Positions 8,617 through 38,701 of a DNA stretch of 43,811 nt are shown here, piece after piece. Made by a program: the position numbers and the translations under genes. A model generated the notes under the pieces. That model was not told where the DNA came from and searched no databases. It saw nothing but the letters and a program-made list of their open reading frames with translations. Positions within the stretch are counted from its first letter, which is position 1. Each line of letters starts with the position of its first letter. Origin of the DNA: Fibrobacter sp. (GTDB lineage: Bacteria > Fibrobacterota > Fibrobacteria > Fibrobacterales > Fibrobacteraceae). Where the stretch lies: assembly GCA_017503015.1 (NCBI GenBank), contig JAFVTX010000052.1, positions 1-43,811 of the forward strand, read 5' to 3'.

Positions 8617-8822
8617 GTAGTTGTGAGTTGTGAGTTGTGAGTTATGAGGTGTGAGTTGTGAGTTATGAGGTGTGGGACGTGAGGTGTGGGGTGTGAGTCG
8701 TCATCCTCACGCAGGTGAGGATCCGCTTACTGCAATCTAGCAGATCCTCGCCTTCGCGAGGATGACATCCCTCAAAGCGAAGCGACCTCAAACCCCTAGC
8801 CCCTAAATCCTAGCCCCTATCC
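8617..8822. repeat. Repeat-filled gap: GAGTTRTGAG tract, GGATGACA hairpin, CCCCTA tract
   Basis: The 212 bp between mpaA and the vanY-like gene consist almost entirely of repeats. 8617-8696 is a run of GAGTTGTGAG/GAGTTATGAG/GAGGTGTGGG variants. 8699-8768 is a GTCATCCTC...GAGGATGAC inverted repeat with internal hairpins (CCTCACGCAGGTGAGG, CCTCGCCTTCGCGAGG). 8790-8822 is a CCCCTAGCCCCTAAATCCTAG tract. All three motifs recur elsewhere in the window. Confidence 0.8.
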
Positions 8823-8823
8823 C

Positions 8824-9495
8824 CTAGACAAAATACGGATAGATATATTCCTCCGCCAGTTGAGGGAGACGGGCAAGAACCACCCGCTTACAAGCCATGT
8901 CCGAACCTTCGTAAATCTTGCGGAGCGTGTCCAGCGAGAAATGCCCCAGACGCTTGCGGGAGGTAGGCAGGTGGGCGATGTGCCAGCCTTCGGGCCGAAT
9001 TTTTCCGCGGCCTGGGACGAACACCCGGTCAAAGCCGAAAGCTCCGTCGGTGGCAAAACGTTCATCCAAAAACTTGTGGAAGGCGGCGAACATTCCGGAG
9101 CACTCCTCCGGCGTAAGCTGGACTTCGTAACCTTCTGGGCAGGCTCGCCCATCTACCACGTCCAGGTCTGTCCCAAGATGATGACGGCTCGCCCCCGGAA
9201 GGGCCGACCAGGTGAGAATGGCATACATCAGTTCTTCTTCGTCTTGAGGCCGTTCCATGGGAACACCTTCTGCCGAAAACAGGGGCAGTTCCCCACGGGC
9301 CTTGCGGTTCCAGATGGAAAGCTGCCGTTCAAAAGGGCGGTAGGCCGATTCTATCCGAAGTTCAAATCCTTCCGCCGCAGCCGCATCTTTTAATTTGTTC
9401 AAAAAAGGCAGGATTTCGGCATCCACAAGGTAACCGGGAGCCGCCTCTACAAGGTTCGGCTTTCCAAGTCCGTAGGGCAACAAATCTTCGGTCAT
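8824..9495 (-). CDS. D-alanyl-D-alanine carboxypeptidase, VanY/M15 family
   Basis: Zinc D,D-carboxypeptidase of family M15B, expected to trim the terminal D-Ala of peptidoglycan stem peptides. The SxHxxGxxxD zinc motif is present as SRHHLGTDLD (H105, G108, D112), the last ligand in GWHIAHLP, and the family's SAYRPFERQ segment near residue 50. From ATG 9495 the protein is 223 aa with no signal peptide, so export is not evident. The start is set by a TAATG overlap with the stop of ruvC; a longer frame from 9534 would overlap ruvC by 40 bases and is less likely. Co-transcribed with ruvC by overlap. Confidence 0.85.
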   Translation of the reverse strand: MTEDLLPYGLGKPNLVEAAPGYLVDAEILPFLNKLKDAAAAEGFELRIESAYRPFERQLSIWNRKARGELPLFSAEGVPMERPQDEEELMYAILTWSALPGASRHHLGTDLDVVDGRACPEGYEVQLTPEECSGMFAAFHKFLDERFATDGAFGFDRVFVPGRGKIRPEGWHIAHLPTSRKRLGHFSLDTLRKIYEGSDMACKRVVLARLPQLAEEYIYPYFV

Positions 9496-19550: not shown

Positions 19551-19690
19551 GGTTAGGGGTTAGGATTTAGGGGCTAGGATCTAGGGGTTAGAATCTAGGG
19601 GCTAGGATCTAGGGAGATGTAAAGTGTGAGATTAGTAATGAGTTTTCAGTTATGAGTTGTGAGGCTTAGGGTTCGGGGTTCGAGGCTTGT
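19551..19690. repeat. TAGGGG/CTAGGAT and GAGTTRTGAG tracts
   Basis: Between two divergent genes. 19551-19616 is a telomere-like run of TTAGGGG, TTAGGATTTAGGGG and CTAGGATCTAGGGG units. 19621-19664 holds GTGTGAGATTAGTAATGAG and CAGTTATGAGTTGTGAG. 19665-19690 holds TTAGGGTTCGGGGTTCGAGG. The same two motif families recur together near 8617, 26370 and 37620-37790. Confidence 0.8.
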
Positions 19691-31504: not shown

Positions 31505-31784
31505 TATATTTACCCATATAGCAGTCAGTCCCGCTGACAGCGATAAATTCCGGGCGGGTAGTTCAACTCTCTGCTTGACGCCGTCCTCCCTTTGCAGGCG
31601 CGACATGCCCGCGATTCGAGGACAGGAACCCTATGGGGAGGCCGGCCCCTGGCGATCAACGTAGAGCACCCCCACGTTTTGTGGGATTCCCAATCTGTCA
31701 TCAACAGGTTTGTGGACCGGTGTTCTGCGTTTCTACACACATGCTCCTGTTTGCAAACCACAAAATTTTCACAGGAGTTCTCAA
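31505..31784 (+). promoter_or_regulatory. TATATTT box and long untranslated leader of the Rpn gene
   Basis: TATATTTA at 31505-31512 is the nearest promoter-like box, which would leave a ~270-nt leader before ATG 31785. The leader is G+C-rich and has possible hairpins, for example CCCCAC-GTTTT-GTGGG at 31671-31684 and GGAGGCCGGCCCC near 31636. An ACAGGAG ribosome site lies eight bases before the ATG. No good coding frame. Whether the leader regulates the nuclease is unknown. Confidence 0.4.
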
Positions 31785-32573
31785 ATGACTATCAAGCCTT
31801 TTGACGATCTGGACATTACGGACCCGATTATGTTCGGGCTCGTATTCAGCAACACCCATATTGCCAAGCCCTTTATCGAGCACCTGCTCGGCATCGAAAT
31901 CGACCACCTCGAAACCCCAACCCCAGAAGCCGTGCTGAGCTATGATGCGGAGCACAAGGGCGTCCGCTACGATGTATTCGCACGGGAAACAAACGAAAAC
32001 GGAGAAACGATTCGCTCTTTTGACTTGGAGATGCAGATGGTCGACACCAAGGAACTCCCACAACGAGCACGGTATTACCAGAGCGTATGCGATGGCGTTG
32101 CACTCTCGAAGGGAGATTTCTACACCAGCCTCAGGGAACAGCATGTCATATTTCTGTGCCCAATGGACATTTTTAACCACGGATATCCCGTTTACCACTT
32201 CGAGAACCGAGCCCGAGAGAATCCCGACATCACTTTGGGGGATCTTTCTTATAAGAATTTTTATATATTTACAAGGTACGAGCAGTTTAAGGATTCGGTC
32301 GTCAGGGCGTACATGAAATACTTTGCGACCAGGCGTGCGGACTCCAACGAAACCCAAAACATCAACAGCCAAGTCGCCTTCTACAAGACCGACACATTCA
32401 TAAGGAACAAATACATGACTTACGAATACGATCTCCACGAAAGCAAAGAAGCGGGAAAGTGGGAAATGGTGGACGCAATGCTCGCTAATGATATCCCCGT
32501 TGAAAAAATCGCTACTATTTCCGGTTTTTCCAAAGAAGATATTCTCAAGCGCAGTGCTGCTTCAGCAAAGTAA
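31785..32573 (+). CDS. Rpn-family PD-(D/E)XK nuclease (transposase-31-like)
   Basis: 262-aa protein of the Rpn/PDDEXK_2 family (recombination-promoting nucleases; long members are DNA-cutting toxins in other bacteria). N-terminus KPFDDLDITDPIMFGLVFSN is typical. The nuclease core shows D in GVRYDVFARE and E-x-Q in FDLEMQM, followed by RARYYQSVCDG and the family's FLCPMDIF and YKNFYIFTRYEQ segments. The tail after AGKWEMVDAMLANDIPVEKI is shorter than usual and lacks the Glu/Gly/Lys-rich linker that Rpn proteins normally have; that linker is instead present in the duplicated cassette just downstream. ATG 31785 is set by AGGAG. The gene contains an internal AAGGA-ATG start (32415) in frame. Confidence 0.88.
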   Translation: MTIKPFDDLDITDPIMFGLVFSNTHIAKPFIEHLLGIEIDHLETPTPEAVLSYDAEHKGVRYDVFARETNENGETIRSFDLEMQMVDTKELPQRARYYQSVCDGVALSKGDFYTSLREQHVIFLCPMDIFNHGYPVYHFENRARENPDITLGDLSYKNFYIFTRYEQFKDSVVRAYMKYFATRRADSNETQNINSQVAFYKTDTFIRNKYMTYEYDLHESKEAGKWEMVDAMLANDIPVEKIATISGFSKEDILKRSAASAK

Positions 32574-32689
32574 TATTCTCAAGCCGAAAACCATCAACAG
32601 CCAAGTCGCCTTCTACAAAACCGATACATTCATAAGGAACAAATACATGACTTACGAATATGATCTCCACGAAAGCAAGGAAGCGGGAA
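32360..32689 (+). repeat. 98-bp direct duplication of the Rpn 3' region
   Basis: 32360-32457 and 32592-32689 are 98-bp direct copies, 232 bp apart, with four differences. All four are synonymous in the Rpn reading frame (Lys, Asp, Tyr and Lys codons). A 12-bp microhomology ATATTCTCAAGC (32539-32550 and 32573-32584) marks the junction. Beyond the repeat the two copies continue into different C-termini. Confidence 0.9.
32402..32417 (+). promoter_or_regulatory. Internal ribosome site and in-frame ATG within the Rpn gene
   Basis: AAGGA eight bases before ATG 32415, in frame with the nuclease; it would yield a 52-aa C-terminal product starting MTYEYDLHES. The same signal is retained before ATG 32647 in the downstream copy. 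In other Rpn systems short products from internal starts (RpnS) neutralise the long nuclease, so this may be the antitoxin start. Confidence 0.45.
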
Positions 32690-32823
32690 GAGCCGAAGGA
32701 AAAGCCGAGGGGATGACCGAAAAAGCCCGCGAAATGGCGCGAGGGTTGCGTGATGACGGAGTTTCCCTGGAAATCATTTCCCGTCGTTCGGGGCTTTCCA
32801 TCGAAGAAATCAAAGCCCTCTAA
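32647..32823 (+). CDS. Stand-alone Rpn C-terminal cassette, possible RpnS-like small protein
   Basis: 58 aa if started at ATG 32647 (AAGGA eight bases upstream). It reads MTYEYDLHESKEAG, then the Glu/Gly/Lys linker RAEGKAEGMTEKAREMARG and the classical Rpn C-terminal helix pair LRDDGVSLEIISRRSGLSIEEIKAL. This is the canonical family tail that the upstream full-length gene lacks. The frame continues upstream to 32592 as INSQVAFYKTDTFIRNKY, the copy of the parental gene. It could be an independently translated antitoxin-like peptide, or simply the remnant 3' end of a second Rpn gene left by recombination. A terminator follows 25 bases after the stop. Confidence 0.55.
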   Translation: MTYEYDLHESKEAGRAEGKAEGMTEKAREMARGLRDDGVSLEIISRRSGLSIEEIKAL

Positions 32824-32880: not shown

Positions 32881-33047
32881 CAATGAAGTCTAGTGAATTT
32901 ACAGACTCACAACCGCCAGCTCCGCACGGGCAGTTTTTTTGAGGGGTGGAGCAGATTATTCGGCCTGTGGGCCTCAGATTATTCTAGATGGCGGGTCCCT
33001 TCGACTGCGCTCAGGGCAGGCTCTGCCCGCCATGACGTTGACGTGTG

Positions 33048-33205
33048 CCTTACGGGGTTTTACAGAAACCCACGCGGCTCAACCACGCCATTTCGCACAA
33101 GTGCGCTTGGCGTGGCGCTCGCCTTACGGGGTTTTACAGAAACCCTTGCGGCTCGGTAAAACCATTTCATGCAAGCACGATTGGTTTTACGCTCGCCTTA
33201 CGGGG
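33048..33205. repeat. 74-bp tandem hairpin repeat with compensatory stem changes
   Basis: Two full 74-bp units (33048-33121, 33122-33195) and the start of a third. Each has a constant hairpin GGGTTT-TACAG-AAACCC and a second hairpin whose outer 8-bp stem differs between units but pairs perfectly in both: CCACGCCA/TGGCGTGG (33083-33090, 33108-33115) and TAAAACCA/TGGTTTTA (33157-33164, 33182-33189). An inner stem-loop with an AA loop is also kept. Four of eight outer pairs changed on both sides. Confidence 0.85.
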
Positions 33206-33208
33206 TTT

Positions 33209-33306
33209 TAGGGGCGGAGCCCCTAGGAGAGGGGGTAGGCAAAGACTCAAGGAGATCCCCGACCAAGTCGGGGATGACATGAGGCTGGAGCGAGGGGGGA
33301 GGCTTC
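33209..33306. repeat. Composite GGGG/CCCCTAGGAG element, copy 1
   Basis: Order on the plus strand: GGGGCGGAGCCCC hairpin, CCCCTAGGAGAGGGGGTAG, AAAGACT, the hairpin ATCCCCGACCAAGTCGGGGAT followed by GACA, GGCTGGAGCGAG and GAGGCTTCCCCC. The same modules in the same order occur at 38703-38900 with different hairpins inserted. Together with 32881-33047, which holds GGGCAGGCTCTGCCC and CCTTCGACTGCGCTCAGG repeat pieces, this makes the whole 486-bp gap repeat-derived and non-coding. Confidence 0.7.
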
Positions 33307-33309
33307 CCC

Positions 33310-33744
33310 CTATGCCCCTTCTACATACAACTTCTTCATCTCGTCGGAAATGGCCATAGGGCGGCCGCGGTTCAGGTCCACCAGCACCCACTGGGTCTCG
33401 GATTCGAAAATCACCTTGCCGTCGGACACCCGCTCGAACTTGCACTTTCGAATGGTGGCCACCTTGCCGTAAGCCGCCACCCAGGTGGTGCCCTTGATTT
33501 CGTCGCCCAGGAACGCCTGGTTCTTGTATTCGATGTGCTGCACGTGGATCATCCAGCCGGCGCCAAGGCTTCTCATGAGGGCGGTGCCGCCTACCGATTC
33601 GGAGTGGGCGATGGCGATGTCCTGGATCCACTGCACGGACCACACGTTGTTGAAATGGTGGTTGTCGTCAATCATCTCCGGCGTCACCTTGAACACCTGG
33701 GTAAACTGCATGGGGTTCACCGTCTCTTCCATCGCAATGGCCAT
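33310..33744 (-). CDS. Hotdog-fold acyl-CoA thioesterase (4HBT-like)
   Basis: 144-aa hotdog-fold thioesterase of the 4-hydroxybenzoyl-CoA thioesterase/YbgC type, which hydrolyses acyl-CoA or acyl-ACP thioesters. The active-site segment is MIDDNHHFNNVWSVQWI (D27, N28, H30), followed by AHSESVGG, WMIHVQHIEYKNQAFLGDEI and the strand RKCKFERVSDGKVIFESETQWVLVD. The exact substrate is unknown. ATG 33744 is preferred because GGAGG lies four bases upstream; the frame runs on to 33825. The composite repeat ends 3 bases beyond its stop. Confidence 0.87.
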   Translation of the reverse strand: MAIAMEETVNPMQFTQVFKVTPEMIDDNHHFNNVWSVQWIQDIAIAHSESVGGTALMRSLGAGWMIHVQHIEYKNQAFLGDEIKGTTWVAAYGKVATIRKCKFERVSDGKVIFESETQWVLVDLNRGRPMAISDEMKKLYVEGA

Positions 33745-37807: not shown

Positions 37808-38701
37808 ATGAGCCTCAACACGAACCGCATGGACGCCTACCTGGCCTTCTTGGGAGTGGAACGGAACCTTTCGCCCAAGACCATCCAGAGCTACCAGGAA
37901 GACCTGCGGCATTTTATCGCCTGGCTAGACGAGGACGGCATCGACCTGAAAGAACTCACCCCCCAGAAACTGGACGAATTCCTGACTCTTACCGCAAGCC
38001 GCGCGGAATACTCCCCCACCTCCGTAGCGAGGCATTTTTCTAGCCTGCGGGGGTTCCTCAAGTACATGCAGAACCAGGGCGAGTACAACTTCAGCACGGA
38101 ATCCATGCTGGAGCGTCCGAAACTCGGACACTACCTGCCGGAATACCTTACCCGCGAAGAAGTGGACAGCGTTTTCGAAAGTGCTGCCAACGGCAAGAAC
38201 CCGCTGAGGGATACCGCCCTCTTCGAGCTCATGTACAGTGCAGGACTCCGTATTTCGGAAGCCCTGGGCATCAAGCTTTCGCAGCTGGACCTGGACAACG
38301 AGTGGCTCACGCCTATCGGTAAGGGCAACAAGCAGCGCCTGATTCCCCTGGGCAGCAAAGCAAAAGAAAATTTGAGGGCGTGGATCGAAGATGGCCGACC
38401 CCTCACCCACCCGACTACAGACAACATAATCCTAAACAAAAACGGCAAGCCCATGAGTCGCATGGGAGCCTGGAAAATTGTGCAACAGCACACGGCCCAC
38501 CTGACCAAGCAGGTGTCGCCCCACACCTTCCGCCACAGCTTTGCCACCCACTGCCTGGAAGCGGGTATGGACCTGCGCGTTTTGCAAGAACTGCTAGGCC
38601 ACGCCGACATCAGCACCACGCAAATTTATACGCATATCGACAAGGAATTCATCAAGCAAGAACATAGGCAGTTCCACCCGAGAGAAATGAGCGGGAAGTA
38701 A
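37808..38701 (+). CDS. xerD: Tyrosine recombinase XerC/XerD-like
   Basis: Site-specific tyrosine recombinase; XerC/D resolve chromosome dimers at dif with FtsK. 297 aa, standard length. The N-terminal SAM-like core-binding domain (1-105; LGVERNLSPKTIQSYQEDLRHF) precedes the catalytic domain with the full set R148 (SAGLRISEAL), K172, H239-x2-R242 (HTFRHSFATH), H265 (LLGHADISTT) and nucleophile Y274. XerD is the better guess from the core but XerC cannot be excluded. No integrase-type arm-binding domain and no att sites, so a housekeeping role is likely. A dif site is not recognised here. Confidence 0.88.
   Translation: MSLNTNRMDAYLAFLGVERNLSPKTIQSYQEDLRHFIAWLDEDGIDLKELTPQKLDEFLTLTASRAEYSPTSVARHFSSLRGFLKYMQNQGEYNFSTESMLERPKLGHYLPEYLTREEVDSVFESAANGKNPLRDTALFELMYSAGLRISEALGIKLSQLDLDNEWLTPIGKGNKQRLIPLGSKAKENLRAWIEDGRPLTHPTTDNIILNKNGKPMSRMGAWKIVQQHTAHLTKQVSPHTFRHSFATHCLEAGMDLRVLQELLGHADISTTQIYTHIDKEFIKQEHRQFHPREMSGK

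What the first reader, a model, noticed from the sequence alone, without database searches (positions are those of the whole stretch)
33048..33205. Tandem 74-bp hairpin repeats with compensatory base changes
Both units have identical length, a constant GGGTTT/AAACCC hairpin, and a variable hairpin whose 8-bp outer stem differs at four positions, each compensated on the other arm (CCACGCCA/TGGCGTGG against TAAAACCA/TGGTTTTA). Loop-side TTTC and the AA apical loop are kept. Such covariation implies selection on a folded RNA or DNA hairpin, or a copying mechanism that writes both arms together. A third copy begins at 33196.
Basis: seen in the sequence. Interest (0 to 1): 0.66.

Follow-up and report, generated by a model that had tools for sequence, protein, structure and literature searches.

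The report
Mobile double-hairpin repeats in Fibrobacter
The two repeats belong to a genus-wide, apparently undescribed family of ~80-base mobile DNA pieces in (probably) Fibrobacter, each folding into hairpins and carrying about seven bases complementary to the spot it has landed in, which points to an unusual way of inserting.

Summary
Two 74-bp units (33047-33120, 33121-33194) share flanks identically but have different, self-complementary stems. The 'third copy' is only the trailing target sequence.

They belong to a dispersed family. A covariance model finds 20 copies in this genome and 7-71 in each of 49 genomes of the genus, and none in 32 other genomes of the phylum. Across about 150 copies, 15-17 of 18 base pairs covary, while conserved unpaired bases and one A.C mismatch are kept.

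A filled/empty comparison at cmk shows an 80-bp insertion with a 7-bp direct repeat of X, and a K-T dinucleotide sits at a fixed distance in the target.

Most likely this is a non-autonomous mobile double-hairpin element moving through a folded single strand, with X' matched to each target at insertion. The enzyme is unknown: neither RAYT-type transposases nor reverse transcriptases are consistently present. Relationship to REPs and mitochondrial double-hairpin elements is by analogy only.

The parts
33047..33051 (+). GCCTT: probable remnant of the right end (CTCGCCTT) of a further, lost unit
   Evidence: Same sequence as the right ends of modules 1 and 2; sites with such left-hand remnants are common in the family. 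Inference.
33052..33061 (+). First copy of the target sequence X (ACGGGGTTTT)
   Evidence: Direct repeat of 33126-33135 and 33200-33209.
33066..33071 (+). X' of unit 1 (AAACCC), inverted copy of X; can pair with 33055-33060 (short h1-type hairpin) or with 33129-33134 (extends hairpin A)
   Evidence: Folds; match 6 of 7.
33074..33125 (+). Hairpin module A, unit 1 (stem CCACGCC/GGCGTGG, apical CAAG)
   Evidence: Covariance model hit, 68.2 bits, E 4.3e-13.
33126..33135 (+). Second copy of target sequence X (ACGGGGTTTT)
   Evidence: 10/10 identical to the third copy.
33140..33145 (+). X' of unit 2 (AAACCC), pairs with 33203-33208
33148..33199 (+). Hairpin module A, unit 2 (stem GTAAAACC/GGTTTTAC, apical CAAG)
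   Evidence: Covariance model hit, 68.4 bits, E 4.0e-13.
33200..33209 (+). Third copy of X, which is the end of another dispersed repeat (33200-33310) that served as target
   Evidence: 43 matches of the region in the genome, most of them to this repeat; a close relative has that repeat without the A array (L183).

Best explanation
The window holds a two-unit array of a non-autonomous mobile element, a bacterial double-hairpin element, that is specific to one genus. A full element is about 80 bp: [h1, a hairpin with variable stem and usually a CTNCG loop] - [X', about 7 nt] - [A, a 43-52 nt hairpin with conserved unpaired bases: GGC-TC-GG.CATG ... CAAG ... C.C(TC)-GCC-TT, variable self-complementary stem and a conserved A.C mismatch]. 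It inserts next to a K-T dinucleotide, duplicates about 7 bp of target (X) and ends up with X' complementary to X, so the resident form reads X-h1-X'-A-X. Shown: the family, the covariation, the locus-specific X'/X pairing, the direct repeat, empty and filled sites, a nested insertion, and dispersal on both strands. Inferred: that mobility runs through a folded single strand (which explains why unpaired bases and pairing are kept rather than stem sequence); that X' is matched to the target at insertion, most simply by copying the target; and that arrays such as the window's mostly arise by repeated insertion at the same target or by exchange of units. The enzyme is unknown.
For: Family and range: 20 copies in this genome; present in 49/49 genomes of the genus, 0/32 in the rest of the phylum; 71 and 44 copies scattered over both strands in two near-complete genomes. 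Structure: 17/18 and 15/18 pairs with changes on both sides, 89-90% of cells paired against 69-70% in shuffles; stems change faster than unpaired bases at matching sites, 0.145 against 0.039 per site. X'/X: 67% of 152 copies have 5 or more contiguous pairs against 11% in shuffled pairs, with helix length peaking at 7 and falling at 8; 5 or more of 7 matches in 100/152 against 13.6 expected. Target: K at position 8 and T (88%) at position 9 beyond the element. Direct repeat left of h1 with 6 or more of 7 in 35/92 against 3.9 expected. Insertion: at cmk, G004 differs from the empty site of G071 by 87 bp = 80-bp element plus second copy of CTATATT. At sufB some species are filled, some empty, and four carry a second element inside the tip of the first. 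At the window locus a relative with an identical thioesterase protein lacks the array. Same target with unrelated stems in 8 of 12 adjacent pairs, the window among them.
Against: No enzyme identified and no transposition observed. About a third of copies show no X'/X match, including a subfamily (h1 GACGCCTTCGGCGTC, target GCACACTTTT) that shares X, h1 and a poorly matching X' at sites flanked by different genes; this fits inheritance of X' better than copying. Some empty sites could be deletions; only the cmk pair is clean. G-U and A.C frequencies are equal (28 and 25), so strand and nucleic acid of the active form stay undetermined. Some of the statistics include related copies. Only the best-scoring copies of each genome were examined.
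Confidence: 0.72

Rival explanations
1. Structured regulatory RNA: the modules are transcribed 3'-UTR or 5'-leader hairpins kept by selection on the RNA at each locus (mRNA stabilisation, processing or attenuation).
For: Strong covariation. Copies are mostly intergenic, and the CTCGCCTT end lies within 12 nt of a stop codon in 15 of 58 cases where a gene points towards it.
Against: No Rfam match. G-U is no commoner than A.C. Copies lie at promoters and at gene ends, in either orientation. Empty orthologous sites, nested insertion and decaying copies. Orthologues at the window site mostly show uncompensated changes.
Confidence: 0.12
2. Guide-directed insertion: X' is an inherited 7-nt guide in a folded RNA or ssDNA that selects targets by base pairing; guides diversify by mutation. 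(A sub-version of the mobile-element reading, so its probability overlaps with the best explanation.)
For: Fixed length of about 7 nt beside a conserved hairpin and a fixed K-T at the target. A subfamily sharing h1, X' and X at different sites. Precedent for hairpin-flanking guide bases in IS200/IS605 (own knowledge).
Against: X and X' differ between almost all copies of one genome. Adjacent elements with unrelated A (and, where present, often different h1) share one X. The shared-guide subfamily matches its target poorly.
Confidence: 0.25
3. REP/REPIN-type element mobilised by a RAYT or IS200-type Y1 transposase.
For: Size, dispersal, imperfect palindrome with conserved mismatch.
Against: Y1 transposase absent from at least eleven well-assembled genomes of the genus that carry 15-59 copies; only a fragment in this genome. 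No GTAG or CGTC tag: the bases flanking A are not conserved.
Confidence: 0.05
4. Ordinary tandem repeat whose arms were made complementary by replication slippage or quasi-palindrome correction, without mobility.
For: Such correction would also write both arms; some arrays are plain duplications (4 of 12 same-target pairs).
Against: Conserved unpaired bases in 49 genomes, scattered copies, empty and filled sites with a direct repeat, nested insertion.
Confidence: 0.04

Closest known systems
Mitochondrial GC clusters and double-hairpin elements (yeast, Allomyces; repetitive hairpin elements of sponges)
   Same: Tiny, non-coding, GC-rich hairpins, single or double; intergenic; gained and lost between close relatives; tandem and merged units; short direct repeats beside yeast GC clusters; mechanism unknown (PMC4478555, PMC2800124).
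   Different: Bacterial; direct repeat about 7 bp rather than AG or ACT; conserved unpaired bases of their own; a target-complementary segment between the two hairpins, not mentioned in the passages read. No sequence relation tested or claimed.
REP / BIME / REPIN and GTAG- or CGTC-tagged palindromes
   Same: Dispersed intergenic imperfect palindromes, often in clusters, thought to be mobile as folded DNA (PMC3733652, PMC3116915).
   Different: No GTAG or CGTC tag, no consistent RAYT, longer, second hairpin and X' segment, wide sequence variation with covariation.
Integron attC sites
   Same: Recombination sites read from structure more than sequence, with extrahelical bases, an unpaired spacer and a variable tip (PMC5371416 names these features; details from own knowledge). 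Module A has an analogous layout.
   Different: No attC boxes seen, scattered instead of cassette arrays, target duplication.
Bacterial MITEs and mobile repeats such as bcr1 of Bacillus
   Same: Short, non-autonomous, direct repeats, folded (own knowledge).
   Different: No clear terminal inverted repeats; the inverted bases match the target, not the other end.

Membership tests
REP (GTAG/CGTC-tagged palindromes) | GTAG or CGTC tetranucleotide at the foot of the hairpin | tested here: not met
   Positions -9 to -1 beside module A carry at most 0.43 bits; definition from PMC3733652.
REP (GTAG/CGTC-tagged palindromes) | Association with a RAYT / Y1 transposase (GTAG class) | tested here: not met
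   PF01797 sporadic in the genus, absent from many well-assembled genomes with tens of copies.
REP (GTAG/CGTC-tagged palindromes) | Many dispersed, mostly extragenic copies | tested here: met
Double-hairpin mobile elements (organelle type) | Two adjacent hairpins forming one unit | tested here: met
   h1 with perfect stem of 5 or more bp in 108/152 copies; in the window's units h1 is reduced to X-ACAG-X'.
Double-hairpin mobile elements (organelle type) | Presence/absence between close relatives | tested here: met
   cmk, sufB and window loci.
Double-hairpin mobile elements (organelle type) | Common ancestry with organelle elements | not tested
   No organelle sequences compared; works like, not filed as a member.
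MITE | Terminal inverted repeats | tested here: inconclusive
   Left end G(G)CRC and right end ...GCCTT share at most about 4 bp by eye; no formal test.
MITE | Target-site duplication | tested here: met
   6 or more of 7 in 35/92 copies against 3.9 expected; CTATATT at cmk.
Integron attC | R'/R'' core boxes (GTTRRRY / RYYYAAC) | tested here: not met
   Conserved ends are CGGCTCGG and CTCGCCTT.
Integron attC | Integron integrase in the genome | not tested
   Only the XerC/D-like recombinase in the window was typed; it scores well under the integron-integrase cut-off.
Described Rfam RNA | Score above family threshold | tested here: not met

The most novel reading that the evidence does not exclude
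A mobile element that rewrites part of itself at each insertion: an internal segment of about 7 nt is synthesised as the complement of the new target, giving direct-inverted-direct copies of the target separated by two hairpins (X-h1-X'-A-X), as would result from two hairpin-bridged strand switches of a polymerase. No such target-copying hairpin element is known to me in bacteria.
Probability: 0.35. Interest if true: 0.82.

Novelty: new variant of a known kind. Interest (0 to 1): 0.62.

Why it matters
A whole genus of gut cellulose degraders appears to carry an undescribed class of mobile hairpin DNA at tens of sites per genome, often beside promoters and stop codons. The target-matched segment makes the insertion mechanism testable from sequence alone, and offers a bacterial system for the long-open question of how tiny hairpin elements without genes (REPs without RAYT, mitochondrial GC clusters) move. 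It also shows that apparent compensatory mutations between tandem repeats can come from insertion history rather than selection.

Tried and rejected
Known RNA family: no Rfam hit. RAYT/IS200 and reverse transcriptase: not consistently present. Linked nuclease: the Rpn-type gene beside the window array recurs at one other sampled locus only, and no neighbour family recurs apart from shared loci and large paralogous families. Exact-sequence pattern in the genome collection gave nine single hits in unrelated taxa, taken as chance. Phage and plasmid collections: no match. Integron-like array: rejected by scatter. RNA-strand preference from G-U against A.C: no signal. My first loose regular-expression search was useless and was replaced by the covariance model. 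Literature: four searches on Fibrobacter repeats or structured RNAs and one on miniature elements found no description; only open-licence papers are held.

Full report
Observation. The window (contig C52 of a 2.96-Mb draft genome) has two tandem 74-bp units at 33047-33120 and 33121-33194. Each unit folds better than shuffled sequence as RNA and as DNA. The 'third copy' is only a third copy of the shared flank. The organism is probably Fibrobacter: neighbouring loci carry the Fibrobacter-type families TIGR02145 and TIGR02147; the tool does not name genomes.

Family. A sequence search found one other similar copy in the genome and scattered ones in the genus. A covariance model from 18 copies found 20 copies in this genome, copies in all 49 genomes of the genus, and none in 32 genomes from other genera of the phylum. 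In two near-complete relatives 71 and 44 copies are spread over both strands. I fetched 60 further loci and collected 162 model hits, 152 of them distinct copies with full flanks. In the two alignments 17 and 15 of 18 pairs change on both sides, 89-90% of cells are paired (69-70% in shuffles, 25-56% with slid partners), and covariation is 0.46-0.47 against 0.15-0.17. The outermost stem flips G-C to C-G in over ten copies. One position is a conserved A.C mismatch (128 of 151) followed by T.G or T-A. These alignments were fitted to the model, but the first alignment, made by MAFFT without it, gives the same picture.

Outside the modelled 52 nt, the bases just left of the module (X') pair with the bases just right of it (X), and both differ by locus. 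The longest helix has 5 or more pairs in 67% of 152 copies against 11% when flanks are shuffled among copies, and its length peaks at 7 and drops at 8. Counting 7 fixed positions in two registers, 100 of 152 copies match at 5 or more, against 13.6 expected. Left of X' lies a second hairpin, h1, with freely variable perfect stems and mostly CTNCG loops, in 108 of 152 copies. To the right, G or T followed by T (88%) occurs 8-9 nt beyond the module, although this is host sequence. The last seven target bases recur directly before h1 (6 or more of 7) in 35 of 92 copies, against 3.9 expected.

Mobility. At the cmk gene, G071 reads GGCGCAATTTTCTATTTTTGTCCCCACTCATG. G004 reads GGCGCAATTTTCTATATT, then GGCGCCCTTTCTGGGCGC-ATATAGC-ACGGCTCGG...CTCGCCTTAAG, then CTATATTTGCTCCCACTCATG. 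That is 87 bp more: an 80-bp element and a second CTATATT, with its inverted copy inside. Other relatives are empty, G008 carries an independent-looking element, and G020 two in tandem. At sufB this genome and three relatives are filled, others are empty, and four carry a second element inside the tip of the first. At the window locus G022, whose thioesterase protein is identical, has the same surroundings without the array. G016 and G028 have the two stem types in swapped order. Among 12 adjacent pairs sharing one target, 4 have near-identical stems, and 8 have stems as different as those of unrelated copies. I read this as repeated insertion at, or exchange into, the same target; the window is one of the eight.

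Selection or copying. In same-site comparisons stems change faster (0.145 per site) than unpaired bases (0.039), with 40 compensated pairs, 39 changes to G-U type pairs and 27 breaks or repairs (the comparisons overlap). At the window site itself most changes between species are uncompensated. So the fold seems to be required mainly when the element moves, while resident copies drift. G-U and A.C are equally common (28, 25), so nothing marks one RNA strand as the functional one.

Mechanism. The best reading is a non-autonomous mobile element recognised as a folded single strand through its unpaired bases, inserting beside K-T with a repeat of about 7 bp, and acquiring a complement of the target. 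The acquisition could be copying at insertion, which the shared-target arrays favour, or an inherited guide, which one subfamily (h1 GACGCC-TTC-GGCGTC, target GCACACTTTT) may favour. The enzyme is open: Y1 transposases and reverse transcriptases are missing from many genomes with many copies, and no gene family travels with the copies. The active enzyme may have been lost, or may be a housekeeping recombinase or polymerase.

Comparison. It works like mitochondrial GC clusters and double-hairpin elements and like REPs, but it fails the tag and transposase criteria of REPs and the box criterion of attC. I therefore file it as a new variant of bacterial and organellar palindromic mobile elements. 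The library searches found no description of it.

Noticed in passing
window 33200-33310: A second dispersed repeat, ACGGGGTTTTAGGGGCGGAGCCCCTAGGAGAGGGGGTAG ... GAGGGGGGAGGCTTCCCCC, accounts for most of 43 matches in this genome; its interior differs between copies and its end is a frequent landing site of the A element.
   Followed up: partly
window 33256-33280: ATCCCCGACCAAGTCGGGGATGACA resembles CGTC-tagged REP palindromes and lies inside the repeat above; near-identical hairpins occur at many other loci of the genome.
   Followed up: no
window 31710-32823: Rpn-type PD-(D/E)XK nuclease gene whose 3' part is duplicated: the stretch around ACATGACTTACGAATACGATCTCCACGAAAGC recurs, giving a second short ORF with a different C-terminus.
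   Followed up: no
L208, L211, L213, L224 (upstream of sufB): A second double-hairpin element is inserted into the apical hairpin of a resident one, with an X' that does not match the visible flank.
   Followed up: partly
L044, L086, L087, L103, L114: Subfamily sharing h1 (GACGCC-TTC-GGCGTC or close), X' (CGTGGCT or close) and target GCACACTTTT or close, at sites with different neighbouring genes and with different A stems.
   Followed up: partly
window 19554-19614 and 8791-8827: 14-bp tandem repeats TAGGGGCTAGGATC and AACCCCTAGCCCCT; similar CTAGATCCTA strings occur in intergenic regions of relatives (L201, L032).
   Followed up: no
window 37808-38701: XerC/XerD-like tyrosine recombinase gene about 4.6 kb from the array; looks like the housekeeping enzyme.
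   Followed up: partly
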